Assembly (NCBI GenBank): GCA_948144175.1
Contig: CANXME010000105.1
Span: forward strand, 248,001-312,000
Length of the DNA stretch: 64,000 bases
Source: Closterium sp. NIES-65
Taxonomy: Eukaryota; Streptophyta; Zygnematophyceae; Desmidiales; Closteriaceae
Direction of reading: 5' to 3'
The notes beneath the pieces are model-generated. The model was not told where the DNA came from, ran no database searches, and saw nothing but the letters and a program-made list of their open reading frames with translations. Below are positions 7,126-45,539 of this stretch, piece by piece (the first letter of the stretch is position 1; each line of letters begins with the position of its first letter). The translations under genes were made by a program, and so were the position numbers.

Positions 7126-9120
7126 AACAGACCGACCGTTGTCGTCACGAAAAATGAGGGGCAAACTTTTATTTTCGGAAACTCTGCTGGCATAGAGTAA
7201 AATGAGCTCGGTTGGTAAGTTGTGAGTGCGATGCTTCTGCGATTCGAGCAGAAAGAGAGGCCGTGACGTGAGCCAAGAACAAGTTGCAAACGACGGTGGA
7301 AGGACAGGAGGAAAGATAAGAGCGGAGAGAGAACCAGCGTGGAAGGACGGTGAGTGGAAAACCGAGGTGAAGGGGAGGGGAGGGGAGTGGGGGTTGGGGG
7401 GATTGTGGGGGAAGAGTGGGGCCGAGTGAGGGGAGGGGAGGGGAGGGGGAGGGGGGAACGGGAGGGGAGGGGAGGGGAGGGGGAGGGGGGAACGGGAGGG
7501 GAGGGGAGGGGACGGGAGGGGAGGGGAGGGAAAGTGAGGGGGAAAGGAATCTTGGTCGCCTCGCCGCCACAAAACATGCAAGCAGCAGCATTCAACATTC
7601 CAACCAAACTCGTTGGAAACGAACCGCCATGCCACAGACCACGGAAATCGGATGGGAACATGGAGGTTCTGGGGTGAGGAATATCGCATCCCAAGAACAG
7701 CCATGAAAGTCCTGGGATTTCCGCCCCAGTGAGGAGGTGATGTGAGGAATACAGTTCTTACATCCCAGCAGAAGCCGTGAAAGCCTTGCGATTTCCGCGC
7801 TCTGCCCTGGTTCAGTTTTCCGTCCCAGGTTCTGGCGCCAGCTTGTGGCAGTCGAATTTTTTCCTGACGTGCGCGCCATTGGGCGGTACTGTACTGCACC
7901 AGGCAGACTTTCAGCAAATCCTCGATTTCCTATGTAGGCTGGGAAAGGGGAGACAGGTTTGGAATGGACACATGGGCTGTTTCGGCATTGAGCTGCTATC
8001 TAGGCGGAGCGCGGGCAAGTAAAGAGGAGCAGCAAACCACTAGAAAATGCTGCCGGAAACTTGGAAATCCCGAAATGTTCCGGGAACAAGGTTCAGAACC
8101 AAATCTCGAACCGTGGATCTTGGTCAAAGGATGTCAAGTGGAGGTTTCAAATTTGACCTGCCTAGTGTTGGGCGGTTTTTACGAATTCAGGAGGCGGCGC
8201 CTTCCTGCCGAAGCTGGCCATTTGTTTGGTTCGGAATTTCGGGCACCCAGCCACTCGCGTTCAAGGTTACACAACCGACCAGCTGTAACGTCCAGCACGG
8301 TCTCACCATTGTCTCCGTTTGCAGCGGGAAGCGGTGGATTTATTGCCACTTAATGATTTTAGTGGTGTTTGATCCGCTTCATGCAGTGCAAGGACGAACG
8401 TGGAAAATCGTGTCATCATTCGAGTCTTGTCACTGTACGGGTAAGAAACAGAACTTGGGAGGTTTTTCTAGTGCCGTTTGTTGGGTTTCGTGAGATTTGT
8501 GGGAACAAAACACTGAATATAACTTTGTATTACAGCCTGCCCAACGGTGGTTAGTGAGGGCAGCGAGTTGGGATCTACAGTAACCGTGAGTGATGGCATG
8601 TGAACTGACCAACCAACGCCTTCCTTTCCGCCAGAGACCGTCAGGCATGAAGAGACACGACAAGATGCATGCATGCACGCGTACACCCAAGAAATCTCCA
8701 TATGATTCACTGCACGAGCCAGCGCGGACGAGGTTAGGTGTGTCGTGTGGCTTGGGGCAGCAGCAGCCCGTGTGAGTTGGAACCGCTGGGGCTCACACGC
8801 TTCTTGCATGGATGGTTTGATCCCAAAAGGCGGTACCCTTATTGTATGTCCTTCACGAGCAACGAGCAGTAACACGCATTGATAATAGCGAGTTTGTGAA
8901 CAGTCGAACTGACAATCAGTTTAGTTGCATATTTAGCCCTCTATTTTACCCAAGGGTTGCCTCAACCTGTAGATATTTCATCTTGCCGTGGGCATATGCT
9001 AATCAGTGGTGAAGGTGGAACATTACACACATGCTGTGAACAATAGGCAGGCTGCTAATGTTTCCCATGTTAAGAATTGTCGAACAAGAGTAAGAAAGCA
9101 ATCCCAACAAAAGAAGACGC
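7126..9120. other. Intergenic region between the 1402-aa gene and EMC5
   Basis: A G-rich minisatellite (GGGGAGGGGA-type) occupies about 7370-7545 and could form quadruplexes. A diverged duplication of about 65-80 bases sits at about 7676-7735 and 7743-7797 (AAAGYCYTGSGATTTCCGC core), with a weaker third copy near 7625-7660. This resembles the exon-end duplications in the introns of neighbouring genes, but I could not assign an exon. Nothing else was recognised. Confidence 0.35.
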
Positions 9121-12260: not shown

Positions 12261-12602
<342 letters not shown>

Positions 12603-15149: not shown

Positions 15150-15965
15150 AGTGGTCTTCTCATTATTTGCGAGCGCCGATAATCGATGATGCTTGCAACC
15201 CTCCCACGCCCTTGCTGGCTTGGCAATAGGACCAGACAAGTGCAACCACGTGACCCGACGGAAAACAAACGCTCGGAACGAGTGCTTCCACCCCCAAAAC
15301 GCGGAAGGAGCCGCACATGTGCAGGAAGTGCAGCGAGCGCTCTTCATTCGCGAGCGCTGATGACCGATGATGCTTGCAACCCTCCCACGCCCATGCCGGC
15401 ATGGGAATATGACCAGAAAAGCGCAGCCACGTGACCCACCGGAAAACAAACACTCGGAACGAGCGCTTACACCCCCAAAACGTGGAAGGATCCGCACATG
15501 TGCAGGAACTGCAGCGGTCGCACTTCATTCGCGAGCGCCGATGACCGATGATGCTTGCAACCCTCCCACGCCCTTGCTGGCTTGGAAATAGGACCAGACA
15601 AGCGCAGCCACATGACCCGGCGGAACAAAAGCGCTCGAAACGAGCGCTTCCACCCCCAAAACATGGAAGGACCCGCACATGTGCATGAAGTGCAGCAGGC
15701 GCTCTTCATTTACGATCGCTGATGACCGATGATGCTTGCGACCCTCCCACGCCCTTGCTAGCTTGGTAATAGGACCAGACAAGCGCAGCCACGTGACCTG
15801 GGGAAAGAAAAACGCTCCGAACGAGCGCTTCCACCCCCAAAACGCGGAAGGATCCGCACATGTGCTGGTAGTGCAGCGAGCGCTCTTCATTTGCGAGGCG
15901 CCGATCCCGATGATGCTTGTAACCCTCCCACAACCTTGCTGGCTTGGTAATTGGACCAGGCAAGC
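15150..15965. repeat. 181-bp satellite array, segment 1 (about 4.5 units)
   Basis: Units contain GATGATGCTTGCAACCCTCC, GCAGCCACGTGACCC, the hairpin AACGCTCGGAACGAGCGCTT, the palindrome GCACATGTGC and GCGCTCTTCATTCGCGAGCG. The segment ends exactly at the AAGC target duplication of the gypsy element. Confidence 0.95.
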
Positions 15966-16364
15966 TGTCGTGAATCTTCCTCTGTCCACCCTCATTCCCT
16001 TTCTCCCCTGTGTATCCTGCTGACTTCTCCTTCTCTCCTTCCTTCCCTGCCACCCGTACTGCTGATCAGGTTCATCCCTTCTTCCTCCTGGCGTATGTAA
16101 TCACTCTGTCCTGCACTCCTCCTGGTACCTCAGGCTTCCCACCAATTCACAGGCTGGAATTGAATTCGTCTCCACCAACCTCCTTGAATTCGCCTCCCAC
16201 TAACCACCTCAAATTCCCCAGCTACTCGGCTCTGCAGTACAGTACAATACACTCCAAGCACACAAATGAAATTAGAGTACAAAAGCGGTAAACTATAGTA
16301 CACCCTCACCTTGGCTGCTATGATATTCACACTTAGTTGCCAGCTAAGTGTTAATAACGCGACA
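15966..16364 (-). repeat. 3' LTR of the gypsy element, chimeric
   Basis: 16144-16364 matches the outer 221 bases of the right LTR. 15966-16143 matches the element's own internal 3' end (about 16365-16543), including the last codons of pol. The two terminal repeats therefore agree only in part. Confidence 0.75.
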
Positions 16365-16472
16365 GCTGTTGAGAATATTCCTCTGTCCACCCTCATTCCC
16401 TTTCTCCCGTGTGTATCCTGCTGACTTCTCCTTCTCTCCTTCCTTCACTGCCACCCGTACTGCTGATCAGGT

Positions 16473-19400
16473 TCATCCCTTCTTCCTCCTGGCATATGTA
16501 ATCACTCTGTCCTGCACTCCTCCTGGTACCTCAGGCTTCCCTGCCCCCTCCCGTGTCTCAGCGCCCATCTTTGCCGCTTGAGTCACGGGACCCAATGCCT
16601 GAGGCTTCCCTTGTCCCTCCCTGGTCACGTTGGTGATGTGTTCCTTGATGATTCCCCCTCGAATATCTTCCAGCACTAACACTCCCGAGCCTCGTATCTC
16701 TTTCACCTTCCATCGCTCCGATCCCACCGCTAAGTCCAGCGTGTCGCGCTTAGCTTTGCGAAGGTATACCTCCTGCCCTGCCTCCACCTTATCACCCTTT
16801 CCCCCTATCCCTGATGCTTTACGTTGCTGGTATCGTCTTGCGTCACGCAGCTGCGCCACATGTAGGTTATCCAGAGCTGCCGGAGTCAGCTCCTTCAAAT
16901 ACTTTGCTCTCCTCTGGGCTAACTCCGCCCACAGGTTTGGCTCATCTGCCTCAATAACCGCAGAAAGCAGCTTCGGAGCATCGACCGGCAGCACAGGATC
17001 CCGCCCGAACAGTAAGTGGTATGGGGATAGGTTTCTTAGAGCCGCCTGCTTTGCGAACCTGTACCCCGCCAGCACCCACCAGAGATCTCGGTCCCAACTC
17101 CTTTTGTGGGACTCACTGTAGGCCCGTAGTCCTTTCTTCAAGGTCTGTATGAGCCTCTCGGCCAGTCCGTCTGATTGAGGATGGTACCTAGAGGTGACCC
17201 TGTGCGTGATACCCATCTCTTCCAGCAGCTCGTCGAAGCTCCCTTGAAATTCCGTCCCTTGATCAGTGAGTACCTCCCCGCATGCCCCATACCTGGTGAG
17301 CACCAGCTCCTCAAAAGCGTCAGCTATCAGTGCGCTGTTCTTGCTTGGTAACGCTCGCGCCTCCACCCATTTACTCGTGTACTCAACCATCACCAGAATG
17401 TACTGCTTCCCTCCTTTTGATAGTGGCAGCTCTCCCGCGAGGTCCAACGACCACCTGTAGCCCAACCCGCGAATTGGTAAAGAATGCACCTCATCTCTCT
17501 CTTTCTCTAGCCTTGCTTTATTCCTCTGACATGCCTCGCAGCTCGCCACTAATCCTGCCACATCCTTTCCCATGCTCACCCACCAGTACATGGTGCTCAG
17601 CAGCTGCCGTGTTCTGGTTATGCCGAAGTGCCCCAGCTTCGCGTGCACATTCCCCATAATCTTGGCTCTCTCCTGTGGTTGTGGCACCACCTTCCACCCT
17701 TCGTTGGTTCTCAGCTGCAGCTGTTCCTGAAACCACCTGAAATGCTGCCCTCGGGCCCTGGCTCTCTTGCTCACTCCTTCCTCTTCTAGTGGCTCCCCTT
17801 TGATCCAGCTCAGGGTCTCCTCATCCTCCCATATATCCCCTAACCGCTTCTTTCCTTTCTCCTGCCCCCAGGGTATCGCTGCTACTTGAGCCAGGGCTGC
17901 CAGCTGCGCTACCGGCTGCATTGGTGGCGGATTCCTTGATAACCCATCTGCGTGCTGCAGCGTTTTCCCAGGCCGGTGTCGGATCTCAAAGTCGAATCCC
18001 AGCAGCTTAATGGCCCAGCGAGCGTTTCTTCCCGTCAGCTCCTGATGAGTCATCAACCATAGCAACGGCTGGTGATCAGTCACAAGTGTGAAGCGCCGAC
18101 CCTGCAGGTACACCTTGAAGTGAGTGATCCCCCATACAGCTGTCAGACCCTCCCCCTCGTAAGAGCAGTAGTTAGCCTCGGATGGGCTGCAGCTGCGGCT
18201 GGCGAAGGCTACCACTCTCTCCTCTCCTTCTATCTCTTGGCAGAGCACTGTCCCCATTCCTGTACTGCTCCAGTCGGTGTATAAGATGAAAGGGGCATCT
18301 GCCCTCGGTATCTGCAGCAGCGTTCCCGTTTGTACTGCTTCTAACAGGTCCTGCCTTGCCGTTTCCTCCAGCTCTCCCCACTGCCAGCTCCTCCCTTCCT
18401 TCAGCAGCGGATTCAGTATGTAGGCTCGGCGGCTGAAGCTCGGTACAAACTTCCTGTAATAATTCAGGAAGCCGAGTAACGCCCGTAGCCTGGTCTTATC
18501 CTTTGGTGCTGCCAGGTTCTCCAGCACCTTAAATTTTGCTTCCTGTATCGCCAGCCGGCCCCCTTTCACTTCAAAGCCCAGGTAAGCCACGGTCTGCCTT
18601 GCTATCTTGCACTTGTCTGGATGGCACGTCAGACCCGCAGCTGCTATAGCCTCTAGCGTCTGCTTCAGATCTTGCACGTGCTGCTCTTCACTGCTGCTGA
18701 AAATCAGTATATCATCTATGTAGCAGGCTGCTGCTGGAATCCCCTTCAGCACCTGATCCATGGCCCGCTGGAAACCTGCAGGGGCGTTGCGTATCCCGAA
18801 GGGCATCACATTGTACTCATACAGCCCATCCACCCCGTGAAACGCCGTTTTCCGTTTGTCTTCCTCCCTGATGGCTATCTGGTTGAACCCCTGTCGCAGG
18901 TCCAAGGTGGTGAAGATGATGGCGCCTTCTAAGCGATCAAAGATGTCATCTTCTGTTGGCATGGGGTACCTGTCCGGGCTGGTAATCTTGTTCAGCTCCC
19001 GAAAATCTCCACACATCCTTTTCGCCAGCACTTTACCCGTGATATCCTTCCTGGCAGCTACCACTACGGCTGCTGCGTAGCTTGACTCGGACGGGCGGAT
19101 AATCCCTGCTGCTAGCAGCTCCTCACAGTTCTCCTTGTAGATAGCCGCATCCTCTGCATTCATTCTCCTTCTTCGTTGGTAAGTGGGTATCTCTGTGGTA
19201 AGGTTTAGCTCCAGCTCTCTTCCCTTGTACCTCCCCAATTCCTGCAGGTTATAGGCGAAAGTGCTCTTGTGCTGGTGCAGCACCTCTCTGATTGCTTCTG
19301 CCGTCTGCTCCTTGATGTCCGTACCTAGCTTCCATTCCTTACCCTGCTCAGCTTCTTTGCCCCCTGCTAGTGCCGCAACATTCTCCTTTCCTCCCGTGCC

Positions 19401-21860
19401 CTGCTCAACAGCTGCATACGCCGCCTGCTTCTCTCCTTGTCCTTGCCTTTTTCCTGTCTCTCCTCCTTTATCAGCTGCCCCCTTCCTCATCTCTTTGATT
19501 AACCATCTCAGCGAGTGCTGGTCTATGGCTCTTCCTAAAGCTGCTCTGCGCATCCCTTCCTCTACCCCTTCTGCTGCGGTTGCTCCTGGCAGGTATCCCA
19601 TGGCTAACTCCCGCTCCAAAGCCGTCGGTTCCTCCCACTTCTTCTTCCGGTGATCGTACACCATCCCTGGTCCTGGTATTCCGTCCACCTCGATGAAACC
19701 TTGTGCCCTGGTGTATGCCACTAATGTAGGCCATGCCCTGCGAGCTTCCCCCACCCGGTTGCACTGGTACTGCCGCGGATGATCTGGTTTTACCACTAGG
19801 GCCGCCACCCTCCCTGGTTCTAAAATATCCTCTACTATCCTGCTTTCGTCCCTCTCCACTCTTGCTAGTCTTGCCCTCAGTTCCCCGTCTGGTAAGACGT
19901 TTTGCCAGTACTGCCGCACCCTATGACAGCGTGCCCCCAAGTGAGCCCCATCACAGCTCACTCCTCTCCCCAGTTCTGCCTCCACCAGCTCCCTTACTGC
20001 CCTGACCGGCTCGCGTACGTCATTCCTCATATCCACATGCTCCAGGAGATAAACATATTCTCCATTCACTTCACTCATCCACTTCATTATGGTGAGTAGC
20101 TTGGTCACCATCCCCGTGCGCTCGTCCTGTAAGCTTTTCCCCTTTCCGGCCCTAGAAGTACCCTGACACTCCCATCCCGCCACTAACAAATCCACTTTAC
20201 CCCAGCTGCTCACGTCTTCTTTCGTGAGCTGCCCCACGTCCCATTTCTTGTTCTGCATGGCCTCCCGTAGTACTTCTTTCATGAGCTGCGCGGGGTACTG
20301 CTGCTGTAACATTTGAGCATGCTTCCATGCCATTCTCCTCACCTCTGGGTCCAATTCTACGTATACCCACTTCTTCACCCTCAGGCCTGCTTCCAAGGCT
20401 GCTGCCAAGCCTGCTCCTATTCCCCCGAACAGCTCCACTAGTGTAATGCTATACTGATCCAGGTGAGCGCTGCCGTTGCTCTTCCCCACACTTCCTCCCC
20501 TCCTACTGTTCTTCCTCAGTCCTTCTGCTCTCCCCGCCTTCTTGGGTTCTGTCTTAACAAACCGTACTGGTAGTTCACTCAGCTCCTTCCCTTCCTCCCA
20601 AAAGTCCGAACGGTAGAGCACCTGCTCCTGCCAGGTACAGATAGTGGTGCCTATCTTGAATAGCAGCTCCATTCCTAGTAGGATATCATAGTCTTCTGAT
20701 TCTGTCAACCCACACTGCACTCTGATAGTGGTCTCCCCCTTCTCTCTCGGCTGTAAGGTTATCTCTATCAGGTCCCGTGTGCATGGCATCCACTTGGGGG
20801 CCCCTCCTTCTGCTGTCATGATCAGTATGCCCTTGCTTACAGTCTCTAGGTTCCCTTGCGCTCGCAGTTGTGCCGTCAGCTTCTTCCCGATTAGGACGCT
20901 CTGTGCTCCTGTATCCACTACCGCGTTTTCTACCAAGATTCCTCTGACCGCCACGGCTTTCGGTTCCACCACTAAGGCTGTGGGCTGACAGACTAGCCTT
21001 TCCTCGGGGTGACGCCGTGCGGTGCTGACTTTCCCTTGATTCTCCTGCCGCCTGGAAATTCTTCGCTCTTGTAATTTCTGCTCCGCTCTGCCATCTGCCC
21101 CTCCGCTGCGCAGCCCCAGGTCTCCCCTCTCCCTTGGCGGCATAGCCATGGTCCCGTATTCTGGTTCCCCTTCCTCAGAATCTTCCCCTTTGTCATCCCC
21201 CCAAGCCAGCAGAGCTTTCTCGGGGTCTTCATTGATCCCTGATTTCTCCATCTGAGCTTTCAGTTTCGCCAACTCTCGTTCTAACTGCAGCTCCCTTGCA
21301 GTTTTCCCTTTTGCCCTGTCTCCCTTGCTGTAGCATCTAGCTTCGGTATGGCCTTTCTTCCCACACCCCATGCAGGTCGGCGCCTTGGGGCAGTCACGCC
21401 TGAAATGTCCCTTTGCTCTACAGGTGTCGCAGATTATTCCCACCGTACAATCCCTCCGAAGATGTCCTTGCTCTCCACATTTATGGCAGCGTCTCGGGTC
21501 TTCCGATGGCCTCTCTTTCCGCTCTTCCTCTCCCCTTCTTCCTTCCATAGCTGCCCAGGCCGGCCGTTTCCGCTCGTTCGGTCGGCTGGAACTCGACCCC
21601 TGCGTGCCATCATAAAATCTCTTCCCTTCCTCCACTTCTTTCGCCACCTTGTAGACTTGCCGCAGCGTGGCGCGTACTCCCAGGACGTACAGCTGACTCC
21701 TCATGTCGCCTATCAGGTCCTTGTCCAGACCGTTGACAAATTTCGTCACCAAGAGGCGCTCCTCCATACACCCCATGTCCTCTGCCAGCTCCAGCAGCCT
21801 GTTGTAATAGGCTAGCAGCGACTCCGAAGTGGCACGCATGAAGTTCTGAAATTCCGCCAT
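16473..21860 (-). CDS. Gag-Pro-MTase-RT-RH-IN polyprotein of the gypsy element (1795 aa)
   Basis: Numbered from Met at 21860. Rest of the gag domain 1-100. Three CCHC zinc knuckles at about 123-178. Aspartic protease VDTGAQSVLIG with Asp316. Methyltransferase-like domain about 468-790. Reverse transcriptase about 870-1100, with motif A FTTLDLRQGF and YIDD (Tyr1047, Asp1049, Asp1050). RNase H with LYTDWSS and TDHQPLL. Integrase with an HHCC finger (HAKLGHFGI...CEACQRNK) and D1473, D1533, E1568, the normal D,D-35-E spacing. The C-terminus has a GPY/F-like part without a recognisable chromodomain. All polymerase and integrase catalytic residues are present. Apart from the upstream gag nonsense codon it looks competent. 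Polyprotein cleavage sites cannot be read. Confidence 0.95.
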   Translation of the reverse strand: MAEFQNFMRATSESLLAYYNRLLELAEDMGCMEERLLVTKFVNGLDKDLIGDMRSQLYVLGVRATLRQVYKVAKEVEEGKRFYDGTQGSSSSRPNERKRPAWAAMEGRRGEEERKERPSEDPRRCHKCGEQGHLRRDCTVGIICDTCRAKGHFRRDCPKAPTCMGCGKKGHTEARCYSKGDRAKGKTARELQLERELAKLKAQMEKSGINEDPEKALLAWGDDKGEDSEEGEPEYGTMAMPPRERGDLGLRSGGADGRAEQKLQERRISRRQENQGKVSTARRHPEERLVCQPTALVVEPKAVAVRGILVENAVVDTGAQSVLIGKKLTAQLRAQGNLETVSKGILIMTAEGGAPKWMPCTRDLIEITLQPREKGETTIRVQCGLTESEDYDILLGMELLFKIGTTICTWQEQVLYRSDFWEEGKELSELPVRFVKTEPKKAGRAEGLRKNSRRGGSVGKSNGSAHLDQYSITLVELFGGIGAGLAAALEAGLRVKKWVYVELDPEVRRMAWKHAQMLQQQYPAQLMKEVLREAMQNKKWDVGQLTKEDVSSWGKVDLLVAGWECQGTSRAGKGKSLQDERTGMVTKLLTIMKWMSEVNGEYVYLLEHVDMRNDVREPVRAVRELVEAELGRGVSCDGAHLGARCHRVRQYWQNVLPDGELRARLARVERDESRIVEDILEPGRVAALVVKPDHPRQYQCNRVGEARRAWPTLVAYTRAQGFIEVDGIPGPGMVYDHRKKKWEEPTALERELAMGYLPGATAAEGVEEGMRRAALGRAIDQHSLRWLIKEMRKGAADKGGETGKRQGQGEKQAAYAAVEQGTGGKENVAALAGGKEAEQGKEWKLGTDIKEQTAEAIREVLHQHKSTFAYNLQELGRYKGRELELNLTTEIPTYQRRRRMNAEDAAIYKENCEELLAAGIIRPSESSYAAAVVVAARKDITGKVLAKRMCGDFRELNKITSPDRYPMPTEDDIFDRLEGAIIFTTLDLRQGFNQIAIREEDKRKTAFHGVDGLYEYNVMPFGIRNAPAGFQRAMDQVLKGIPAAACYIDDILIFSSSEEQHVQDLKQTLEAIAAAGLTCHPDKCKIARQTVAYLGFEVKGGRLAIQEAKFKVLENLAAPKDKTRLRALLGFLNYYRKFVPSFSRRAYILNPLLKEGRSWQWGELEETARQDLLEAVQTGTLLQIPRADAPFILYTDWSSTGMGTVLCQEIEGEERVVAFASRSCSPSEANYCSYEGEGLTAVWGITHFKVYLQGRRFTLVTDHQPLLWLMTHQELTGRNARWAIKLLGFDFEIRHRPGKTLQHADGLSRNPPPMQPVAQLAALAQVAAIPWGQEKGKKRLGDIWEDEETLSWIKGEPLEEEGVSKRARARGQHFRWFQEQLQLRTNEGWKVVPQPQERAKIMGNVHAKLGHFGITRTRQLLSTMYWWVSMGKDVAGLVASCEACQRNKARLEKERDEVHSLPIRGLGYRWSLDLAGELPLSKGGKQYILVMVEYTSKWVEARALPSKNSALIADAFEELVLTRYGACGEVLTDQGTEFQGSFDELLEEMGITHRVTSRYHPQSDGLAERLIQTLKKGLRAYSESHKRSWDRDLWWVLAGYRFAKQAALRNLSPYHLLFGRDPVLPVDAPKLLSAVIEADEPNLWAELAQRRAKYLKELTPAALDNLHVAQLRDARRYQQRKASGIGGKGDKVEAGQEVYLRKAKRDTLDLAVGSERWKVKEIRGSGVLVLEDIRGGIIKEHITNVTREGQGKPQALGPVTQAAKMGAETREGAGKPEVPGGVQDRVITYARRKKG
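19490..20460 (-). other. C5-cytosine DNA methyltransferase-like domain within the gypsy polyprotein
   Basis: Residues about 468-790. Motif I is ELFGGIGAGLAAALEAG (from Glu476; AdoMet-binding FxGxG). The next strand is YVELDPEVRRMAW. The motif IV region is DLLVAGWECQGTSRAGKGKS, where the usual PCQ is ECQ and the catalytic Cys565 is kept. Motif VI is EHV (usual ENV; Glu607). Motif VIII is HRVRQYW (Arg647/Arg649), close to the HRARYFW form of DNMT3-type enzymes. A variable target-recognition stretch follows, then a motif X-like LGRAIDQHSLRWLI. Motif order is the non-permuted DNMT3/bacterial order, not the DRM permutation. Being in frame and uninterrupted between protease and RT, it should be made as part of Gag-Pol. 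Activity is inferred; the ECQ change could reduce it. Confidence 0.88.
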
Positions 21861-21893
21861 CCGTTCCGCCGAGTGCCCCGGGAATTGCTCCTG

Positions 21894-22646
21894 CTAACTC
21901 TCCAGAAATCGGTCCGTTATCATTGCTGGTGAGAAATCGCCTCTCTTGCACTGCATCAACAGCCCCTGCCTTTCCACGCGGTAGTGAGTCAGGGCCTCAC
22001 CTTTCAGAGTCCGTCCCAAACCTCTAAAGAACTCGATAGGGTCTAAGCCCTCCCTCTCCCAAAGGTAACGCAGGTCGTCTATCATCATCAAGTAATTCCA
22101 GAGCGTGGGCTCCTCCCCTGGTGTCCCCGAGAAACGGTCCGGCACTTCAATTTTCGGTAGAGCTGCGTTCATCGTGCGGCCCGTCCCCCAGCTCGTGTTC
22201 CCTCTATCCCCGCTGTCCACCGGCCGACCACCTTGCATAGCTTCAGTAGCCTTGTATCCACCCGCCGCAAAGCTGTGGTACGCTTCTCCTCCTCTCTGAC
22301 GGCGTCTTTCTTCGTGATGTTCATCTTCCCCGCGCTGACTGTGCCGTTCTTCCCGAAACTCTTCTCTTTCTTGAGCAGGATTATCCCCTCGAGATCCACT
22401 CCTCACATGGCCGATTCCACTCCCGCCAGTGACTGATCCACCGGTAGCGCTAGGCGGCGGCTCCCCTTGTCGGTCGCCCTCCCTCTCTCGATCTGATCCC
22501 TGACCCCCGCGCGCGTTAGCATCGCCCTCTTCAGCACGGAATCCAGGTGTCCTGATGGGTAGTCCTTGTCCCTCCATCATCCTTGCAGGGAAACGGAGTC
22601 CCGAGCGCAGCTGATGAGTGTACAGTTCCTGATCGTGCCTACTCAT
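21894..22646 (-). CDS. Gag N-terminal part of the gypsy element
   Basis: 250 codons from ATG 22646 to a TAG at 21896-21894. The first ~150 residues are hydrophilic. The retrotransposon gag domain then starts at about residue 165 (FSGTPGEEPTLWNYLMMIDD) and is cut by the TAG within GDFSPAMITDRFLES. The frame continues in phase after the stop (QEQFPGHSAER, then Met at 21860), so this is a single nonsense codon within one gag domain and not a natural gag/pol boundary. The TAG is followed by CAGGAG, which is not a classic readthrough context. Confidence 0.85.
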   Translation of the reverse strand: MSRHDQELYTHQLRSGLRFPARMMEGQGLPIRTPGFRAEEGDANARGGQGSDREREGDRQGEPPPSATGGSVTGGSGIGHVRSGSRGDNPAQEREEFREERHSQRGEDEHHEERRRQRGGEAYHSFAAGGYKATEAMQGGRPVDSGDRGNTSWGTGRTMNAALPKIEVPDRFSGTPGEEPTLWNYLMMIDDLRYLWEREGLDPIEFFRGLGRTLKGEALTHYRVERQGLLMQCKRGDFSPAMITDRFLES

Positions 22647-23073
22647 TCCTCACGGCGCATCACCGTGAGCGACTCGAGGCTACTAGCTTATCTCCTGTAC
22701 TTAAGATAGTCAACAACCTTTTTGCTTGTATATAGCAAGCGTAACACTCCCCCTCAGGGGCTCCGTCAAAGTGCTTATAGCTTCTCCTACTGCTAGTTCC
22801 CTCTGGATTAGGAAAACAAATTGCAATAAAAAGCAAGAAGCCCGAGTGCTACTCCTGCCTACATCTATTCCCACCCCCTGCCTAGGTTGCTTCCTCCACA
22901 AGCAAGCTCCTGTGCACCAAGCGAGTCAGCCGGGCTGCTCGCGAGGTCTCCAAGGTGCTAGCTGTGTTCACACTGGGCCCACTAGGCATGCACTGCCTTC
23001 CAGCCTGGTGACTTCGAATTCAATTCCCAGGCTGGCATTGAATTCGCCTTCCAGCCTTGTGACTTCGAAATTG
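22647..23073. other. Gypsy 5' untranslated region and probable inner LTR
   Basis: Between the gag start and the recognisable LTR end. It contains an imperfect triple repeat of CCAGCCTxGTGACTTCGAA near 23000-23090 and the inverted repeat CCCCCTCAGGGG at about 22749. No ORF. Confidence 0.5.
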
Positions 23074-23294
23074 AATTCACAGGCTGGAATTGAATTTGTC
23101 TCCACCAACCTCCTTGAATTCGCCTCCCACTAACCACCTCAAATTCCCCAGCTACTCGGCTCTGCAGTACAGTACAATACACTCCAACCACACAAATGAA
23201 ACTAGAGTACAAAAGCGGTAAACAAAAGTACACCCTCACCTTGGCTGCTGTGATATTCACACTTAGTTGCCAGCTAAGAGTTAATAACGCGACA
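23074..23294 (-). repeat. 5' LTR of the gypsy element (shared outer part)
   Basis: 221 bases shared with 16144-16364, ending TTAATAACGCGACA. The LTR probably continues leftward, perhaps to near 22730 where CCCCCTCAGGGG lies, but its inner end is not determined. Confidence 0.7.
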
Positions 23295-24068
23295 AAGCGC
23301 AGCCACGTGACCCGGTGGAAGAAAAACGCTAGTAACGAGCCCATCCACCCATAAAACGCGGAAGGATATGCACATCTGCAGAAGTGCAGTGAGCGCTCTT
23401 CATTTGCGAGCGCCGATCACCGATGATGCTTGCAACCCTCCCACGCCATTGCCGGCTGGGTAGTAGGACCAGACAAGCAGAGCCACGTGACCTGGCGTAA
23501 GAAAAACGCTCCGAACAAGCGCTTCCACCCCCAAAACGTGGAAGGAGCCACACTGTGCATGAAGTGCAGCGGGAGCTCTTCACTCGTGAGCGCTGATGAC
23601 CGATGAAGCTTGCAACACTCCCACGCCCTAGCTGGCTTGGTAATAGGACTAGACAAGCGCAGCCACGTGACCCAGCAGAAGAAAAACGCTCGGAAGGAGC
23701 GCTTCCACCCCTGAAACGCGGAAGGACCCGCACATGTGCAGGAAGTGCAGCGGGTGCTCTTCATTCTCGAGCGCCGATGACGGATGATGCTTGCGACCCT
23801 CCCACGCCCATGCTGGCTTGGTAATAGGACCAGAAAAGCGCAGCCACGGGACCCAGCGGAAAACAAATGCTCGGAACAAGCGTTTCCACCCCCAAAACGC
23901 AGAAGGATCCGCACATGTGCAGGAAGTGCAGCCGTCGCTCTTCATTTGCGAGCGCCGATGACCGATGATGCTTGCAACAAGCCCACGCCCTTGATGGATT
24001 GGTAATAGGACTAGACCAGCGCAGCCACGTGACTTGGCAAAAGCAAAACGCTCGGAACAAGCGTTTTC
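23295..24068. repeat. 181-bp satellite array, segment 2 (about 4.3 units)
   Basis: Continues segment 1 in register after the gypsy insertion. It ends in TTTTC, the left target duplication of copia A. Confidence 0.95.
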
Positions 24069-24410: not shown

Positions 24411-27400
24411 TCAAGAGGAGAGCAAGTGAGGCAAGACAGGCACAAGACCCAGCTGGGTGCAAAAGCGCTGATGGTCACAAGGCGCGAGTGCCTTGGTGAA
24501 CACATCAGCAGTGTTGGCCTCAGAGGCCACGTACGCAAGTCGCAACTGACCACGCTGCTGCAGCTCACGAGCAAGGAAGTAGCGGAGAGCAATGTGCTTC
24601 GTTCTGTGCTCCAAGCGCTGCTCTCGACACAAGGCCAGCATGGCCTTGTTGTCTACGTACAGCACTGGAGGAGAACGAGGCGGCTCTCCAAGGTCAGTCA
24701 GCAGGTAGGTGAGCCAGCGAAGCTCCTGTGCAGCCATGGCCCCGGCGTAGATCTCAGCCTCACAACTGGAGCCGAGAACCGAAGACGAGCGAGTAGACCG
24801 CCACGAGACAGAGCCGGAACCAAGGCTGAAGGTGTAACCCTGTGACGACCGCTGCGTAGCCTGGTCGTCAGCCCAAGAAGCGTCCGCGTGGCCGGTAAGG
24901 ACCACTGGACTCCGCCCTCCAAGCACTAGCCCCATGCTCGACGTACTGCACAAGTAGCGCAACACCCTCTTCGCTGCAGCCATGTGCTCCGGTCTGTGTC
25001 TCCCAGGAGCAACATAGCGTGCAAGAATGCTCAGAGGGTATGCAAGGTCAGGTCGTGTGCAGGTCATCAGGTACATGAGGCAGCCAACAAGCTCTGCATA
25101 CGGACCACTCGACTCTACGGACTCATCCGAAGGCAGAGCTGAGAGTGAGTGACGAGTAGGCAGAGGAGTGGCCTGAGGCGAGGAGTACGTGAAGCCGAAG
25201 CGCTGAAGGACCTGCTGCACCATGTGTGACTGAGTCAAGGTAATGGTGCGGCGTGCTCTGTCCCGAGTGATCTGCAAGCCAAGGTAGCTGCGCAGTTCAC
25301 CCAGGTCTGTGCACGTGTGTCTCTTCAGCAGCTCGGACTTCACGTAGGCGAGTCCAGCAGTGTCCGCTGTGGCAAAGACCAAGTCGTCGACGTACACGAG
25401 GATGTAAAACGGCGGCAGGGAAGTGTCGGTGCGAAGAAATAGCGACGGGTCAGCAGTAGAAGGAGCAAACCCAAGAGCCGCAAGCGTAGTCCTCAGTGTG
25501 TCGTGCCACTCACGCGGTGCCTGGCGGAGACCGTAGACTGGCCGTCGGAGGCTCCACTGGGTGCCAGGAGGGAAAGTCCCAGTGAAGCCAGGTGGACGGC
25601 GAAGCCAGATCTCCTCGTGCAGGCTACCCTGCAAGAACGCAGTGCTGAAGTGGAGAGAGTGAAGCTCGTAGTCGCGCTGAGCGGCTATGTGCAGCAGCAC
25701 CCGAAGAGTAGTCATCTTCGGGGTGGGAGAGAAGGTCTGAAAGTAGTCAACTCCCTGCCGCCGACTGAAGCCACGAGCAACGTACCGTGCCTTGAAGACA
25801 GGTGGAGAGCCCGGCGGCCGCTTCACCCTGAAGATCCACATGCCACTGACGATGTTCGCCCCAGGAGGGGGAACCGCGTCAACGTAGGTGCCTGTGGACT
25901 TCCAGGAAGCCACCTCTGCATCCATAGCTGCCTGCCACTGAGAGGAGTAGGGACCCTCTACGGCCTCCGCGTAAGAACGCGGAGTCGGGATGTCTAGTGC
26001 ATCCGGGTCTCCCTCAGGGGCAAGCAGTACAGACGCGAGATGAGGTGAAGCAGCCGCTAGACACTGTAACTCCTCCTGCCTGTCCTCTAGGACGTCCGTG
26101 CCAAGAGCACACTCACCCCCGACGGACGGAGGACAGACAGACGCAGACTCAGCAACAAGACTAGCAGCGTAGTCGAGATGATAGCGAGCAGCAAAGTCGA
26201 CGAGCTCAGCGACTAGAGCAGACGCATCAGTGGACTCAAAAGAGGGGTCAGTGACGACAGTAGCAAGCAGACGCGTGACAGTAGGACTGGCAGCACGAAG
26301 AGAGTCCGACTCAGGGTCGGCAAGCGCAGGAAGAGAGGACTCAGGAGGAGAAGGTAAAGGGGCACGCAGAGGAGCAGTGGACGAACGCAAAGACATCCGG
26401 TGCGTGCCAGGGACAGGAGGAGGACGCTGACGCGAACTGCGACCACTAGCGCGAGCAGCACGAACAGGCGACGTGGGACGAGACGCAGGCTCACGACGCT
26501 CAGCAAGACCTCCAGTAGGACCAGTGTAAGGAGAGGGAGCAGGCAGTGGAGAGGAAGGCTCCAGTAGGGACTGCGACTGGACAGGCGGTGGACCCTCTAC
26601 TAGAGGAGAAAGACCAAGAACCTGCTGCAGGAGCGGAACGAAGTACGGCCGAGGCCGCGCGGCAGCTCCAGACTCAGCAGGGACAGCACCAGCACCCTCA
26701 GCGACAGCACCAGCGCCACCCACACCTCCAGCGGCAGGACCAACAGCAGTAGGCTCAGCACCAACGCCCTCAGCAGCTCCAGCTCCAGGAGGACCCGCAG
26801 GTCCAGCAGCTCCGGGACCGGCAGCACCCGCACCCTCGACGGTCGAAGAAGCTCCAGCTCCAGCTCCAGCAGCACCTCCAGACTCCGCAGCACGCCTCCA
26901 GCGGCGAGCAAACCACTCGCGCAACTCCTGTGGAGAGAGGGGCTCCCGGCGAGACGCAGCAGCAGGAGAAACCCCAGGGTCAGCAGCTCCAGACGCAGCA
27001 TCCCCAGGCTCAGCAGCTCCCAGCTCAGCACCCCCAGGCTCAGCAGCTCCCGACCCAGCACCCCCAGACCCAGCACCTCCAGGCACAGCACCCCCCGACT
27101 CAGCACCCCCAGGCTCCGCACCCTCCGCAGAAGCACCCTCAGGCCCAGCACCCCCAGGGTCAGCACCCCCAGGCTCAGCACCCGCAGCAGCACTAGAGTC
27201 ACCAGTAACCTCGACCGGGTCAACGGCGTCTACCTGGGACACACCTGAGGGGGCAGGAACCTGAGGGGGGAGGGGGTCTACCGGGGGGGGAACCGGCACA
27301 AGGAAGTCCGGGGGAGGGGGGAGGGAAGGAGTGCGGTAGGGGAAGAGACGGTAGAAGGGGACTGACTCGTCGAACGTGACGTCCTGGGAGGACAGAACAC

Positions 27401-30272
27401 GACGAGAGGAGGGGTGGTAAAACTGCCACCCTGGGGCGTCAGTGGGGAAGCCAAGGAAGACACAGGGAGCAGCACGAGGGGACAGCTTGTCCGCAGACAA
27501 GTCGCGGACAAACGCCCGAGATCCCCAGACACGGAACACAGACGCATCGCCAACCTTCCCCGTCCACAGCAAGGCTGGGGACATCGCAGGCCGAGAGACC
27601 CGGGGGTGAAGGTTGAGCTGATGCGCCGCGTACCTCACCGCAAACGGCCACAGAAAATGGGGGGCAGCCGCATGCATCATGGACGTACGAGCGACATCCA
27701 TGACCATGCCAATGCGGCGCTCAGCAATCCCATTTTGCTGTGGTGAGTCCGGAAGCGTGAAGGTCTGGCGAATCCCCCGTGCACGACAGTAGTCCCGCAG
27801 AAGGCGAGAAGAGAACTCTCCGCCTCTGTCCGAGTGCAGACGCTGAACAGGAAAGTCCGAGCCGAAGCTCTTCCTGAGCTGGAGACGAGCCTCGCGGATC
27901 CAGTCGATCAGCACCTCAGTGACCGCACCCTTGCTGCGCAAGGGGAGGACTGTGGTGTAACGCGAGTAGTCGTCAACCACCAACAGGAAGTAGCGCTCGT
28001 AACCCTGCCCACGGTCGGGGGCTGGGCCCCACACATCCATGTGAAGCGTCTGCAGGGGAGCCTCTGTCGGGGGGAAGTGGGAGGAGTGAGGAGTAGCCCG
28101 GAGGCGACCCTCGACACAGGGGACACAGGAAGGTCCTGGCCCGGAGGGGAGAGGAGGGAGAGACTGGGGAAGACCAGAGACAAGGACACGGGAAGCCATG
28201 CTCCGAAGACGGGGCAAGGAGGGGTGGCCAAGACGGTGGTGCCACAGGAGAGTCTCGTGAGACAGGAGGCGACAAGAACAGGGGGCAGACTCAGGACCTG
28301 ACCGGGACGCAGCAGCAAGCACCTGACCTGACGCAGCCACCTGACCAGACGCAGGGACAGGAGGAGACTCAACTGTCAGGGTGTAGAGACTCGACCCAGG
28401 CCGACGCGAGAACGTGGCCAGGTGGCGGCCTGTGCGTGCCTCCGTGCAGTGGGTCACCCGCTGACTCGCAGGAGTGAACTGGTGAACCCCCACATCCTGC
28501 AGGTCTGCTCCGCTCACCAAGTTCGTAGAGAACGAGGGAAGGTACAGACCAGACAGGGTGCCCGAAGGGGCAGCCGGACACGGGAGGACAGTGGAGAAGT
28601 GAGACAGGACAGGACCCCCAGAGGGGTCAGCAAGGGAGACCGCAACCGGCCGGCCGAGCGGCGTAAGGGTAGTGCGGTCCCGAAAGAAGGAGCGAGAAGC
28701 CCCGGAGTCAAGTGTGAAAGTGAGGGAGGACGAGGACGACGCAGTACCTGAGAGCGCAGTCTCACCAGTACCTGAGAGCACAGACGCACTGGCACCTAGA
28801 GCAGCAGCCTCACAAGCACCTAGCGCAGCAGCACCAATGCCCGGGTCGGGCTGGAAACACCGGTAACCCTCATTCTCCTCACTATAATCCACAGCATACA
28901 TAGCAGCAAGGATAGCATCAAAATCAAGATCAAAGATCGCTACACCAGCCCTAAGAAGCTCATCCCAGCGAGGGATCTCACTAGCCCCAGGGAACTGCCG
29001 ACGCCAAGCGTCCGTCAGGCGGCCAAAGCAGCGCTGGGTGGCGTGGGCACCCCCACACTGCTCACCCGCGCGGTCGCCGGAACGAAGAACGTAGGTGCAG
29101 GGACCAGTACCCCCACCCCTCTGACGCCCAGCGTACCACTCACGAAGCTGCTGAGGCGGAGGGATGTCCCGCGAGCGCTGCTGCTGCTGCCGCTGCGAGC
29201 GCTGGCCACCACCACCGCCGCTACGCTGCTGGGTACCACCCCGACCAGCTCCACCTCCTCCACCACCACCGCCTCCTCCGCTGCCGCCTCCACCGCCTCC
29301 ACCTCCGCCGCCTCCACCTCCGCCGCTGCCACCACCACCACCGCTGGCACCACCACCACCGTCTCCGCCGCTGCTGCCACCACCTCCACCACCACCCCCG
29401 CCACTAGTCCCGCCACCACCCCCACTCCCTCCGCCGCCACCGCCGCCACCGCCACCGCCCCCTCCAGCTCCACCCGCGCCCTTGCCCCCCTTGCCCTTGC
29501 TAGAGCGACGTCTCCCACTAGGGGTAGACGCCGCGCCGACCGACTCAAGACCAAGCAGGTCGGCAGCAGGAGCAGAGGCAACAGAGGGCAGCAAGGGGGA
29601 AGGAGAGCACCCCTCAAAGATGGGGGTGCGAGGGTCACCACGAGAAGCACCTACAGCGACTATGCTCTTCTCCGCTGCGAGGAGGGCCTTCTCGAGGAGG
29701 TCGACGGTGAGGGTGGTGGGACAGACAGCGAGAAAGTGGTCCCTGACGACGCGAAGGGAGTCAGGGAGGCGCGCAACTACGTAGTAGAGAGCGATGTACA
29801 TGGGGGGGGGGTTCTTAGCGCAGAACTCAGCAGGAAGGGCGGCGCGGTAGCGAGTGTCACTAGTGCGGAGGTGCGTAATGAGGTCAGCAACAGTGGGAAA
29901 GGCAGAGAGGTCAGGAAAGAGGTAGGGAAGCATGAGACGGCTCAGTGCAGCAGTGGCAGGGGAGGAGTAGCGCGCAACTACAGCGTCGTACAAGGTCTGA
30001 GCACTCTTGTACTGGCTAAAGTGCGCACGCTCAGAGGTAGGGAGGTGGCGACGCACAGCAAGACGTGCAGCAGCATCGCGGGTGGCCCACTGAGAGCGGA
30101 CAGAGGGATCAGCATCAGCAGCAGGAGCAGGAGAGGCGCCAGAGGTGAGGTCAAAGAGAGAAAGGTCGTCAGCCCTGTCGCACTGTAAGAACAGCTGCAG
30201 GTCGTCTAACCAGACCTCAAAATCAATGGCGCGACCCTCAGCGTCGAAAGCTAGGACACTAGGGGTAGCCAT
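24411..30272 (-). CDS. Copia A Gag-Pol polyprotein (about 1953 aa)
   Basis: I chose the Met at 30272 because copies B and C begin with the same MAxPxVLxFDAEGR block; another Met lies 24 bases upstream. Gag (UBN2-like) occupies residues 1-250, followed by a Gly-rich stretch (about 265-360) and an atypical CxnCx3Hx4C segment instead of a standard knuckle. Protease DSGA is at about 522. Integrase: HHRLGH at about 674, DDE near 745, 816 and 850 (LHMDVWGP, LHSDRGGEF, GIAERRIGM). RT about 1490-1700 with YVDD (Asp1629/Asp1630). RNase H from about 1796 with SSCEAEIYA and DNKAM. Oddity: RT motif A reads SLHFSTAFLQG, the first catalytic Asp being replaced by His1541 (codon 25650-25652, GAC to CAC). Copies B and C keep Asp there. 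The frame is otherwise uninterrupted, but the RT is probably dead. Confidence 0.95.
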   Translation of the reverse strand: MATPSVLAFDAEGRAIDFEVWLDDLQLFLQCDRADDLSLFDLTSGASPAPAADADPSVRSQWATRDAAARLAVRRHLPTSERAHFSQYKSAQTLYDAVVARYSSPATAALSRLMLPYLFPDLSAFPTVADLITHLRTSDTRYRAALPAEFCAKNPPPMYIALYYVVARLPDSLRVVRDHFLAVCPTTLTVDLLEKALLAAEKSIVAVGASRGDPRTPIFEGCSPSPLLPSVASAPAADLLGLESVGAASTPSGRRRSSKGKGGKGAGGAGGGGGGGGGGGGGSGGGGGTSGGGGGGGGGSSGGDGGGGASGGGGGSGGGGGGGGGGGGGGSGGGGGGGGGGAGRGGTQQRSGGGGGQRSQRQQQQRSRDIPPPQQLREWYAGRQRGGGTGPCTYVLRSGDRAGEQCGGAHATQRCFGRLTDAWRRQFPGASEIPRWDELLRAGVAIFDLDFDAILAAMYAVDYSEENEGYRCFQPDPGIGAAALGACEAAALGASASVLSGTGETALSGTASSSSSLTFTLDSGASRSFFRDRTTLTPLGRPVAVSLADPSGGPVLSHFSTVLPCPAAPSGTLSGLYLPSFSTNLVSGADLQDVGVHQFTPASQRVTHCTEARTGRHLATFSRRPGSSLYTLTVESPPVPASGQVAASGQVLAAASRSGPESAPCSCRLLSHETLLWHHRLGHPSLPRLRSMASRVLVSGLPQSLPPLPSGPGPSCVPCVEGRLRATPHSSHFPPTEAPLQTLHMDVWGPAPDRGQGYERYFLLVVDDYSRYTTVLPLRSKGAVTEVLIDWIREARLQLRKSFGSDFPVQRLHSDRGGEFSSRLLRDYCRARGIRQTFTLPDSPQQNGIAERRIGMVMDVARTSMMHAAAPHFLWPFAVRYAAHQLNLHPRVSRPAMSPALLWTGKVGDASVFRVWGSRAFVRDLSADKLSPRAAPCVFLGFPTDAPGWQFYHPSSRRVLSSQDVTFDESVPFYRLFPYRTPSLPPPPDFLVPVPPPVDPLPPQVPAPSGVSQVDAVDPVEVTGDSSAAAGAEPGGADPGGAGPEGASAEGAEPGGAESGGAVPGGAGSGGAGSGAAEPGGAELGAAEPGDAASGAADPGVSPAAASRREPLSPQELREWFARRWRRAAESGGAAGAGAGASSTVEGAGAAGPGAAGPAGPPGAGAAEGVGAEPTAVGPAAGGVGGAGAVAEGAGAVPAESGAAARPRPYFVPLLQQVLGLSPLVEGPPPVQSQSLLEPSSPLPAPSPYTGPTGGLAERREPASRPTSPVRAARASGRSSRQRPPPVPGTHRMSLRSSTAPLRAPLPSPPESSLPALADPESDSLRAASPTVTRLLATVVTDPSFESTDASALVAELVDFAARYHLDYAASLVAESASVCPPSVGGECALGTDVLEDRQEELQCLAAASPHLASVLLAPEGDPDALDIPTPRSYAEAVEGPYSSQWQAAMDAEVASWKSTGTYVDAVPPPGANIVSGMWIFRVKRPPGSPPVFKARYVARGFSRRQGVDYFQTFSPTPKMTTLRVLLHIAAQRDYELHSLHFSTAFLQGSLHEEIWLRRPPGFTGTFPPGTQWSLRRPVYGLRQAPREWHDTLRTTLAALGFAPSTADPSLFLRTDTSLPPFYILVYVDDLVFATADTAGLAYVKSELLKRHTCTDLGELRSYLGLQITRDRARRTITLTQSHMVQQVLQRFGFTYSSPQATPLPTRHSLSALPSDESVESSGPYAELVGCLMYLMTCTRPDLAYPLSILARYVAPGRHRPEHMAAAKRVLRYLCSTSSMGLVLGGRSPVVLTGHADASWADDQATQRSSQGYTFSLGSGSVSWRSTRSSSVLGSSCEAEIYAGAMAAQELRWLTYLLTDLGEPPRSPPVLYVDNKAMLALCREQRLEHRTKHIALRYFLARELQQRGQLRLAYVASEANTADVFTKALAPCDHQRFCTQLGLVPVLPHLLSS

Positions 30273-30296
30273 GGCGACGACAGCGACGCAGTGCAA

Positions 30297-31394
30297 GCAG
30301 TAGGGAAAGAGCTCGCAGTGTCAGTGGGACTGTGCTCACCAGGCACGGCAGGTCGTGCAGCTCTGCAGAAAGGCGGCTCAGCGACCGGGCAGCTCGGGTG
30401 CACAGCGGCTCGGCTCCCGGGCGGCTCGGTGGCTGGGCGGCTGGGGATCCCGGACGGCTCGGCGGCTGGGCGGCTCGGGTGCAGGGCGGCTCGGCTCCCG
30501 GGCGGCTCGGCGGTAGGGCGGCTCGGGTCCCGGGCGGCTCGGCGTTGGGCGGCTCGGCTCCCGGGCGGTTCGGCTGCTGGGGCGGCTCGGCCGGGAGATG
30601 CAGGGGCGGGGCCGTCAGGTGCAGCGGCGGGTCGACCGGTGCAGTGGCGGGCCGGCAGGTGCAGCGGCGGGCCGGCAGGTGCAGCGGCGGGCCGGCAGGT
30701 GCAGCGGCGGGCCGGCAGGTGCAGGCGGCGGGCCGTAGGGTGCAGCGGCGGGCCGGCAGGTGCAGCGGCGGGGCCGTCAGGTGAAGCGGCGGGCCGCTGG
30801 GTGCAGCGGCGGGCCGGCAGGTGCAGCGGCGGGCCGGCAGGAGCAGCGGCGGGCCGGCAGGAGCAGCGGCGGGGCCGTCAGGTGAGGCGGCGGGCCGGCA
30901 GGAGCAGCGGCGGGCCGTAGGGTGCAGCGGCGGGGCCGTCAGAGGCGACGGGCCGCTGGGTGCAGCGGCGGGCCGGCAGGTGCAGCGGCGGGCCGGCAGT
31001 AGCAGCGGCGGGGCCGTCAGGTGAGGCAGCGGGCCGGCAGGAGCAGCGGCGGGCCGTAGGGTGCAGCGGCGGGGCCGTCAGAGGGTGCAGCGGCGGGGCC
31101 GTCAGAAGCGGCGGCGGGGCCGCGGCAGTAGAGGCGGGGCCGCGTCAGGGGAGGCGGCGGGGCCGCGTCAGGGGAGGCGGCGGGGCCGCGTCAGGGGAGG
31201 CGGCGGGGCCGCGTCAGGGGAGGCGGCGGGGCCGCGTCAAGCAGGCGGCGGGGCCGCGATCAGGAGAGGTGGCGGGGCCGCGTCTGAGGGACAGCGGGGC
31301 CGCGAGGGAAAAGGCGACCCGAGGGGTCGCTAAAAAAAAGGCGCGCCTCGGGGCGCGCTTCGGTGGGCCCTAAAAAAACGGTCCTAAGGCAGGA
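30297..31394 (-). repeat. GC-rich leader minisatellites of copia A
   Basis: A 20-bp unit (GCGGCGGGCCGGCAGGTGCA) recurs with variants across about 30640-31080. A ~21-bp GGAGGCGGCGGGGCCGCGTCA unit follows at about 31140-31260. Near 30400-30600 are GGGCGGCTCGGC words. Long open frames here are compositional. Confidence 0.8.
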
Positions 31395-45452: not shown

Positions 45453-45539
45453 AGGGGCAGCAGTAGCAGTAGCAGTAGTAGCAGTAGGAACAGTAGGAGC
45501 AGCAAGAACAGGAGTAGCAGCAGGAACAGGAGCAGCAGT

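What the first reader, a model, noticed from the sequence alone, without database searches (positions are those of the whole stretch)
19490..20460. Gypsy retrotransposon carrying its own DNA cytosine methyltransferase-like domain
Seen: between Asp316 of the protease and the RT of one continuous polyprotein lie, in the right order and spacing, motif I (ELFGGIGAG), a catalytic-loop analogue (GWECQGTSRAGKG, Cys565), EHV (for ENV), HRVRQYW (for QxRxR) and a motif X-like end. Known: such motifs define C5-cytosine methyltransferases; from memory, DNMT-bearing retrotransposons have been described in dinoflagellates and charophytes. Inferred: the element could methylate its own DNA or its satellite target, and the HRxRxxW form points to a DNMT3-like source. 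The PCQ to ECQ and ENV to EHV changes are unusual and bear directly on whether it is active.
Basis: partly seen in the sequence, partly recalled or inferred. Interest (0 to 1): 0.92.

Follow-up and report, generated by a model that had tools for sequence, protein, structure and literature searches.

The report
Algal jumping gene with DNA methyltransferase
A green-alga (Closterium) Gypsy retrotransposon carries a DNMT3-type DNA methyltransferase inside its polyprotein; the kind was reported in 2018 in another alga, but this branch has a repeatedly changed, otherwise conserved catalytic motif, so it can test why mobile elements carry such an enzyme.

Summary
A 7,329-bp Ty3/Gypsy element (15966-23294, minus strand) lies in a 181-bp satellite array, flanked by a 4-bp target duplication. 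It encodes a DNMT3-type C5-methyltransferase (19494-20450) between protease and RT. AlphaFold gives the methyltransferase fold (pLDDT 92.5); the best PDB matches are DNMT3A/B. Relatives occur in Closterium, Klebsormidium nitens, Marchantia and unnamed samples; the Klebsormidium ones are probably the published KnitGypsy-Dnmt3 (2018), so the kind is known. DNMT and RT distances correlate (r 0.85, 17 elements). ECQ for PCQ is not decay of one copy: of 72 ungapped family rows 24 have E, one D, 47 P; the state changes at least 3 times on the tree, and all 24 E rows keep catalytic Cys and motif VI Glu. EHV occurs in six Closterium rows. The element has DIRS-like split repeats (A-coding-B-A-B) yet integrase-type ends. 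This copy has a stop in gag. Activity, substrate and benefit are inferred; dN/dS could not be computed. Most likely the enzyme methylates the element's own cDNA; a catalytically dead regulatory role is the main rival.

The parts
15966..23294 (-). Whole element, 7,329 bp, termini TGTCG...CGACA
   Evidence: Flank alignment and empty-site test
15962..15965 (.). 4-bp target-site duplication AAGC, left copy
   Evidence: Joining the flanks with one AAGC removed gives 37 of 40 spanning satellite hits ungapped; with nothing removed 0 of 40, with two bases removed 0 of 40
23295..23298 (.). 4-bp target-site duplication AAGC, right copy
   Evidence: Same test
23074..23294 (-). Repeat A1 (5' end of the element)
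   Evidence: 7 differences of 221 to A2
16367..16541 (-). Repeat B1 (end of the ORF and start of the 3' untranslated part), 6 differences of 175 to B2
16365..16366 (-). GC dinucleotide between B1 (ending CA) and A2 (starting TG)
16144..16364 (-). Repeat A2
15966..16140 (-). Repeat B2 (3' end of the element)
21894..22649 (-). Upstream gag ORF, ends at an in-frame TAG (21894-21896); in P0006 and P0019 the homologous two parts lie next to each other in one protein
16473..21893 (-). Rest of gag plus pol ORF, 1806 codons
21444..21491 (-). CCHC zinc knuckle (residues 135-150)
   Evidence: Pfam PF00098, E 1.8e-6
20604..20996 (-). Retropepsin-like protease region (residues 300-430)
   Evidence: PF13975 E 0.003, below cut-off; homology to relatives
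19494..20450 (-). DNMT3-type C5-methyltransferase domain (residues 482-800)
20163..20171 (-). Motif IV E575-C576-Q577 (ECQ for PCQ)
20034..20042 (-). Motif VI E618-H619-V620 (EHV for ENV)
19914..19922 (-). Motif VIII Arg658 and Arg660
18567..19019 (-). Reverse transcriptase
   Evidence: PF00078 E 7.9e-32
17994..18299 (-). RNase H
   Evidence: PF17917 E 4.5e-30
17178..17681 (-). Integrase: H2C2 zinc binding and rve core
   Evidence: PF17921 E 5.7e-17, PF00665 E 3.3e-12

Best explanation
A Ty3/Gypsy retrotransposon of the KnitGypsy-Dnmt3 kind. Its Pol polyprotein carries a DNMT3-type cytosine-5 methyltransferase, inherited with the RT. Shown: domain, predicted fold, kept catalytic residues, parallel divergence with RT, integrase-type insertion. 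Inferred: in intact relatives Pol is packaged, the enzyme flips cytosine, attacks C6 with Cys576 (assisted by Glu618 and the motif VIII arginines) and methylates the newly made double-stranded cDNA before or at integration, so that new copies arrive already methylated. The P-to-acidic change in motif IV tunes this reaction rather than abolishing it. This particular copy is probably not autonomous (stop in gag).
For: Fold and DNMT3 affinity. Of 76 family rows Cys is kept in 70 of 72 ungapped, motif VI Glu in 75 of 75, motif VIII Arg658 and Arg660 in 70 of 72 each; split by state, the 24 E rows keep Cys 24 of 24, Gln 24 of 24, Glu 24 of 24 and both Arg 20 of 20 ungapped, and the losses seen at Cys and at Arg (two rows at each site) are all in P rows. 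DNMT and RT distances correlate, r 0.85, 0 of 2000 permutations as high, 17 elements. DNMT identity to P0012 (42%) is higher than protease (34%) and gag (27%), lower than RT (55%). Published: Ka/Ks < 0.2 among K. nitens copies and CG methylation in yeast by SymbioDIRS-Dnmt3 (PMC5890265, sections 9-11 read).
Against: No activity evidence for any ECQ enzyme. The KnitGypsy domain gave no methylation in yeast, which its authors call inconclusive. CpG o/e of the element is 0.62 against 0.69-0.72 in three nearby Copia stretches and 1.02 in the satellite: only slightly lower than the Copia stretches. 3 of 13 repeat differences are CpG transitions: weak. Two family rows have Gly for Cys and Thr for the Asn of ENV (P0088, P0094), so some members look dead.
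Confidence: 0.55

Rival explanations
1. The acidic (ECQ) domains have lost methyl transfer and are kept as DNA-binding or regulatory subunits, as DNMT3L or DRM3 are among host enzymes (DNMT3L recalled; DRM3 as 'catalytically mutated paralog' in the title of PMC2965745, listing).
For: The motif IV proline is replaced in 25 of 72 ungapped rows, and the Asn of ENV, which ties motif VI to the carbonyl of that proline, is His in six Closterium rows; Asn-to-Ala there cut the Dnmt3a rate tenfold (PMC4802922, passages). The isolated KnitGypsy domain was silent in yeast, though that one is the PCQ kind as far as K. nitens P0070 shows.
Against: E rows keep Cys, Gln, Glu (24 of 24 each) and both Arg (20 of 20 ungapped); the rows that lost Cys or an Arg are P rows. 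Motif VI variation without known loss of function exists: fungal Masc1/RID enzymes have EQT or EET (PMC6709928, passages).
Confidence: 0.22
2. The enzyme methylates RNA: the element's own genomic RNA or a tRNA.
For: An RNA role was proposed for the LINE form by de Mendoza et al.; the acidic residue could suit another substrate (inference).
Against: Nearest PDB sequences are DNMT3 (E 2.1e-22); DNMT2 scores E 2.3e-6.
Confidence: 0.1
3. The domain is a passenger that decays neutrally and has no function for the element.
For: This copy has a gag stop and its repeats differ by about 3%; codon-level selection was not tested here. The relatives are predicted proteins, so an open frame in them is no evidence.
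Against: 27 invariant columns among 16 family rows at 33-51% identity to this copy; distances parallel to RT; an 1806-codon open frame through the domain in this copy.
Confidence: 0.06
4. A separate, recent capture of a host methyltransferase in Closterium, unrelated to KnitGypsy-Dnmt3.
For: Only one DNMT3 reference (human, in segments) was in the tree; host algal DNMT3 were not reached by the searches.
Against: The 76 family rows, with Closterium, Klebsormidium and Marchantia among them, form one clade against human DNMT3A and 9 bacterial-type rows (support 92/92, just under the tool's star), and protease-DNMT order is shared by Closterium, rows of the Klebsormidium clade (P0024, P0063, P0071) and Marchantia (P0041, P0045).
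Confidence: 0.05

Closest known systems
KnitGypsy-Dnmt3 of Klebsormidium nitens (de Mendoza et al. 2018, PMC5890265)
   Same: Gypsy polyprotein with a DNMT3-type domain; repeats laid out as in DIRS elements (figure 4 legend); K. nitens proteins P0070 and P0076 fall in the same clade.
   Different: P0070 has PCQ after AGI, Closterium rows ECQ after AGW; the motif is missing from the P0076 gene model. Ends and target duplication are shown here. The paper's own copies were not compared directly.
SymbioDIRS-Dnmt3 (same paper)
   Same: DNMT3 in Pol, A-coding-B-A-B repeats (figure legend)
   Different: Tyrosine recombinase instead of rve integrase; dinoflagellate; active in yeast.
PAT and Ngaro elements
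   Same: Split direct repeats A1-B1-A2-B2 (PMC4157794, passages)
   Different: Those use a tyrosine recombinase and make no target duplication; this has an rve integrase and a 4-bp duplication.
DNMT3A/3B
   Same: Fold, motif order, HRxRxxW-type motif VIII
   Different: About 20% identity; ECQ/EHV; no PWWP or ADD domain among the Pfam matches; about 320 residues against 285-residue DNMT3 chains.

Membership tests
C5-cytosine methyltransferase | AdoMet-binding Rossmann core | tested here: met
C5-cytosine methyltransferase | Motif IV Pro-Cys | tested here: not met
   Cys present, Pro is Glu; family is P or acidic; 10 of 10 reference rows have P
C5-cytosine methyltransferase | Motif VI Glu and motif VIII Arg | tested here: met
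   E618, R658, R660; the Asn of ENV is His here
C5-cytosine methyltransferase | Methyl transfer to cytosine | not testable with these tools
   needs an assay
DNMT3 class | Closer to DNMT3 than to DRM, DNMT1, DNMT2 or bacterial enzymes | tested here: met
DRM | Rearranged motif order | tested here: not met
   Order I-IV-VI-VIII-X
Ty3/Gypsy | PR-RT-RH-IN order with rve integrase | tested here: met
   with DNMT between PR and RT
Ty3/Gypsy | Two identical full LTRs at the ends | tested here: not met
   A-coding-B-A-B split repeats instead
Ty3/Gypsy | TG...CA ends and short target duplication | tested here: met
   AAGC, 4 bp
KnitGypsy-Dnmt3 | DNMT3-type domain in Gypsy Pol, DIRS-like repeats, same clade as K. 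nitens rows | tested here: met
   repeat layout of KnitGypsy taken from its legend
KnitGypsy-Dnmt3 | Purifying selection on the domain (Ka/Ks < 0.2) | not tested
   no DNA of other copies reachable; the genome search did not complete
DIRS/PAT | Tyrosine recombinase, no target duplication | tested here: not met
   rve integrase, 4-bp duplication

The most novel reading that the evidence does not exclude
In this retroelement family the otherwise conserved Pro of the Pro-Cys catalytic motif toggles repeatedly to an acidic residue with no other column changing in step, giving a second, functional class of cytosine methyltransferase whose chemistry or substrate (for instance cDNA during reverse transcription) differs from every characterised enzyme; and the element replicates with DIRS-like split repeats but integrates with a DDE integrase.
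Probability: 0.3. Interest if true: 0.82.

Novelty: new variant of a known kind. Interest (0 to 1): 0.6.

Why it matters
Why retrotransposons carry the enzyme class that hosts use to silence them was left open by the 2018 paper (discussion read). The searches here place DNMT-carrying relatives in Klebsormidium, Closterium and the laboratory plant Marchantia, so the question becomes testable in a genetic model. The recurrent P/E switch gives natural pairs of enzymes for biochemistry, and the split-repeat layout with integrase ends bears on how LTR-type and DIRS-type replication relate.

Tried and rejected
Decay of one copy as the cause of ECQ: rejected, 24 family rows share it and these keep the other catalytic residues. 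A compensating residue: none found; comparing 5 E with 3 P rows of the PHD clade and 19 E with 42 P rows elsewhere, only column 575 separates both. DRM origin: rejected by motif order. CpG depletion as a footprint of self-methylation: inconclusive. Satellite targeting: one insertion, not testable. Relatives in viral contigs: none for P0001; with profile A3, 13 loci at 26-34% identity over parts of the domain, not examined further. Genome contigs with A3: 5 loci, one a whole element (L014) and four from Streptomyces and Saccharothrix at 28-39% over parts of the domain. dN/dS: not possible. L014 cannot show the repeat layout, because repeats collapse in assembly (inference; no further repeats found). 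The three protein searches scored only the 7,992-7,996 candidates sharing most words, so the family list is a lower bound.

Papers: nine searches listed, as far as titles and starts of abstracts show, no report of Closterium or Marchantia DNMT-Gypsy elements; one search listed 20 of 3,025. 'ECQ' had 0 occurrences in the 20 papers listed of 23. Most subscription papers are not held. What was read: PMC5890265 outline, sections 9-11 and passages; passages only of PMC12344493, PMC4157794, PMC6709928, PMC4802922, PMC2927531; the others as listings. [quoted passage not shown]

Tree caveats: the DNMT3 reference is three joined segments of one human chain on a long branch; the tool warns of long branches that meet, P0051 with P0052 among them, which bears on the P/E count. 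That count is 3 on the tree with the motif IV columns and 5 without them; for the latter starred branches force at least 3 and bootstrap trees give 4-5; changes may include reversals. 7 of 86 rows were not used for it (4 gaps, one D, two without Cys). In one search, 37 of 52 proteins passed the length filter. Rows include ENA, JGI and LGN proteins of unnamed organisms and Closterium gene models that may be mis-spliced (several lack motif IV or VIII).

Full report
What is there. The minus-strand ORF 16473-21893 (1806 codons) is a Gypsy polyprotein: zinc knuckle, protease region, methyltransferase-like domain, RT, RNase H, integrase. An upstream ORF (21894-22649) is the start of gag, cut by an in-frame TAG; in relatives P0006 and P0019 both parts align next to each other in one protein, so this copy's gag is probably broken by a nonsense change, unless the stop is read through by the ribosome. 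Homologues place the DNA in or near Closterium: the closest proteins are from NIES-53 and NIES-54 at 87-88% identity over 56% and 43% of the query.

Element ends and repeats. On the coding strand the repeats lie as A1 (23074-23294), coding region, B1 (16367-16541), GC, A2 (16144-16364), three bases, B2 (15966-16140). A1/A2 differ at 7 of 221 and B1/B2 at 6 of 175 positions, so both pairs seem equally old, as if renewed in the same round of replication (inference). The element starts TGTCG and ends CGACA, and is flanked by AAGC on both sides; joining the satellite flanks with exactly one AAGC removed gives 37 of 40 spanning matches without a gap, against 0 of 40 with nothing and 0 of 40 with two bases removed. 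That is an integrase-type insertion. The layout is the split direct repeat of PAT and Ngaro elements (PMC4157794, passages), which use a tyrosine recombinase and make no duplication. The legend of figure 4 in PMC5890265 says that the repeats of KnitGypsy-Dnmt3 have the structure of a DIRS element, and the SymbioDIRS legend spells that as A-coding region-B-A (cut off there). My reading, inferred: a transcript that starts inside A1 and ends inside B2 loses both outer ends, and the internal B1-GC-A2 block holds complete copies of both; its CA-GC-TG junction looks like that of a circle.

The family. Three searches gave 117 proteins with E up to 0.001 (P0002-P0118), of which P0110-P0118 stand apart at E 4e-8 and weaker and serve as outgroup. 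In the tree of 86 rows the 76 family rows form one clade against human DNMT3A and the 9 outgroup rows (92/92); the 18 Closterium rows are one clade (100/99). Two domain orders occur: protease-DNMT, with RT after it where the protein is long enough, in most; RNase H-DNMT-integrase in P0020-P0023, P0051 and P0052, with P0050 showing RT-RH-DNMT. P0020, P0021 and L014 carry a PHD finger after the integrase. L014, a 9,285-bp contig in a cyanobacterial metagenome bin with 127-bp overlapping ends, holds a whole such element, with PCQ, and is probably a eukaryotic contaminant. Among 17 elements with both domains DNMT and RT distances correlate (r 0.85; 0 of 2000 permutations as high), which fits co-inheritance.

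The odd motifs. Among 76 family rows the residue before the catalytic Cys is P in 47, E in 24, D in 1 and a gap in 4; Cys is kept in 70 of 72 ungapped rows (Gly in P0088 and P0094), Gln in 70 of 73, motif VI Glu in 75 of 75, each motif VIII Arg in 70 of 72; His for the Asn of ENV is in six rows, all Closterium, Thr in two. Split by state, the 24 E rows keep Cys, Gln and Glu in 24 of 24 and both Arg in 20 of 20 ungapped; the two losses of Cys and the four departures at the Arg sites are in P rows. All 10 reference rows have P. On the tree built without the motif IV columns the P/E state needs 5 changes, 4-5 in bootstrap trees, at least 3 forced by well supported branches; with those columns, 3. 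No other column separates E from P rows in both clades. In M.HhaI the Asn of ENV bonds to the carbonyl of the motif IV Pro; its loss in Dnmt3a costs a tenfold drop in rate without killing the enzyme (PMC4802922, passages). Fungal Masc1/RID enzymes have EQT or EET in motif VI (PMC6709928, passages). So the change persists in long-lived lineages and is not decay of one copy; whether it changes the chemistry is unknown.

Function. Published work shows that SymbioDIRS-Dnmt3 methylates CG in yeast, that the KnitGypsy domain did not (inconclusive), and that KnitGypsy copies are under purifying selection (PMC5890265, sections 9-11). I could not repeat the last test for Closterium: the genome search gave no answer in 11 tries. 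CpG o/e is 0.62 in the element, 0.69-0.72 in three Copia stretches and 1.02 in the satellite, too small a difference from the Copia stretches to argue from. I hold self-methylation of cDNA as the likeliest role, a dead regulatory domain as the main rival.

Verdict. Real, and of a kind published in 2018. New here, as far as the nine paper searches go, are the Closterium and Marchantia members, the recurrent P/E switch, the two domain orders in this Gypsy family, and the demonstration of an integrase-type insertion of a split-repeat Gypsy element. The library holds only open-licence papers, so prior mention elsewhere is possible.

Noticed in passing
24411-30320 (-), 39425-45872 (-), 50676-56127 (-): Three Copia-type elements or remnants in the same orientation. 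The first has RVT_2, rve and gag_pre-integrase in a 1969-codon ORF with a glycine-rich stretch; part of the third has rve; the second is judged only by likeness of its ORFs.
   Followed up: partly
15165-15965, 23295-24063, 31544-37595: 181-bp satellite arrays, the first two being one array split by the element.
   Followed up: partly
37603-39086 and 48711-49873: Further tandem arrays with units of about 370 bp.
   Followed up: no
12368-12473: Perfect (AG)53 run.
   Followed up: no
59414-62407 (+): Long ORF whose end holds NAEQRAAAAADVDRPLLVLAGPGSGK, like the start of a UvrD-type helicase (recalled); no Pfam match in the ORF.
   Followed up: partly
L014:1-9285: A whole DNMT-Gypsy element sits as a contig in a cyanobacterial metagenome bin, probably eukaryotic contamination; the overlapping ends could also reflect an extrachromosomal circle.
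   Followed up: partly
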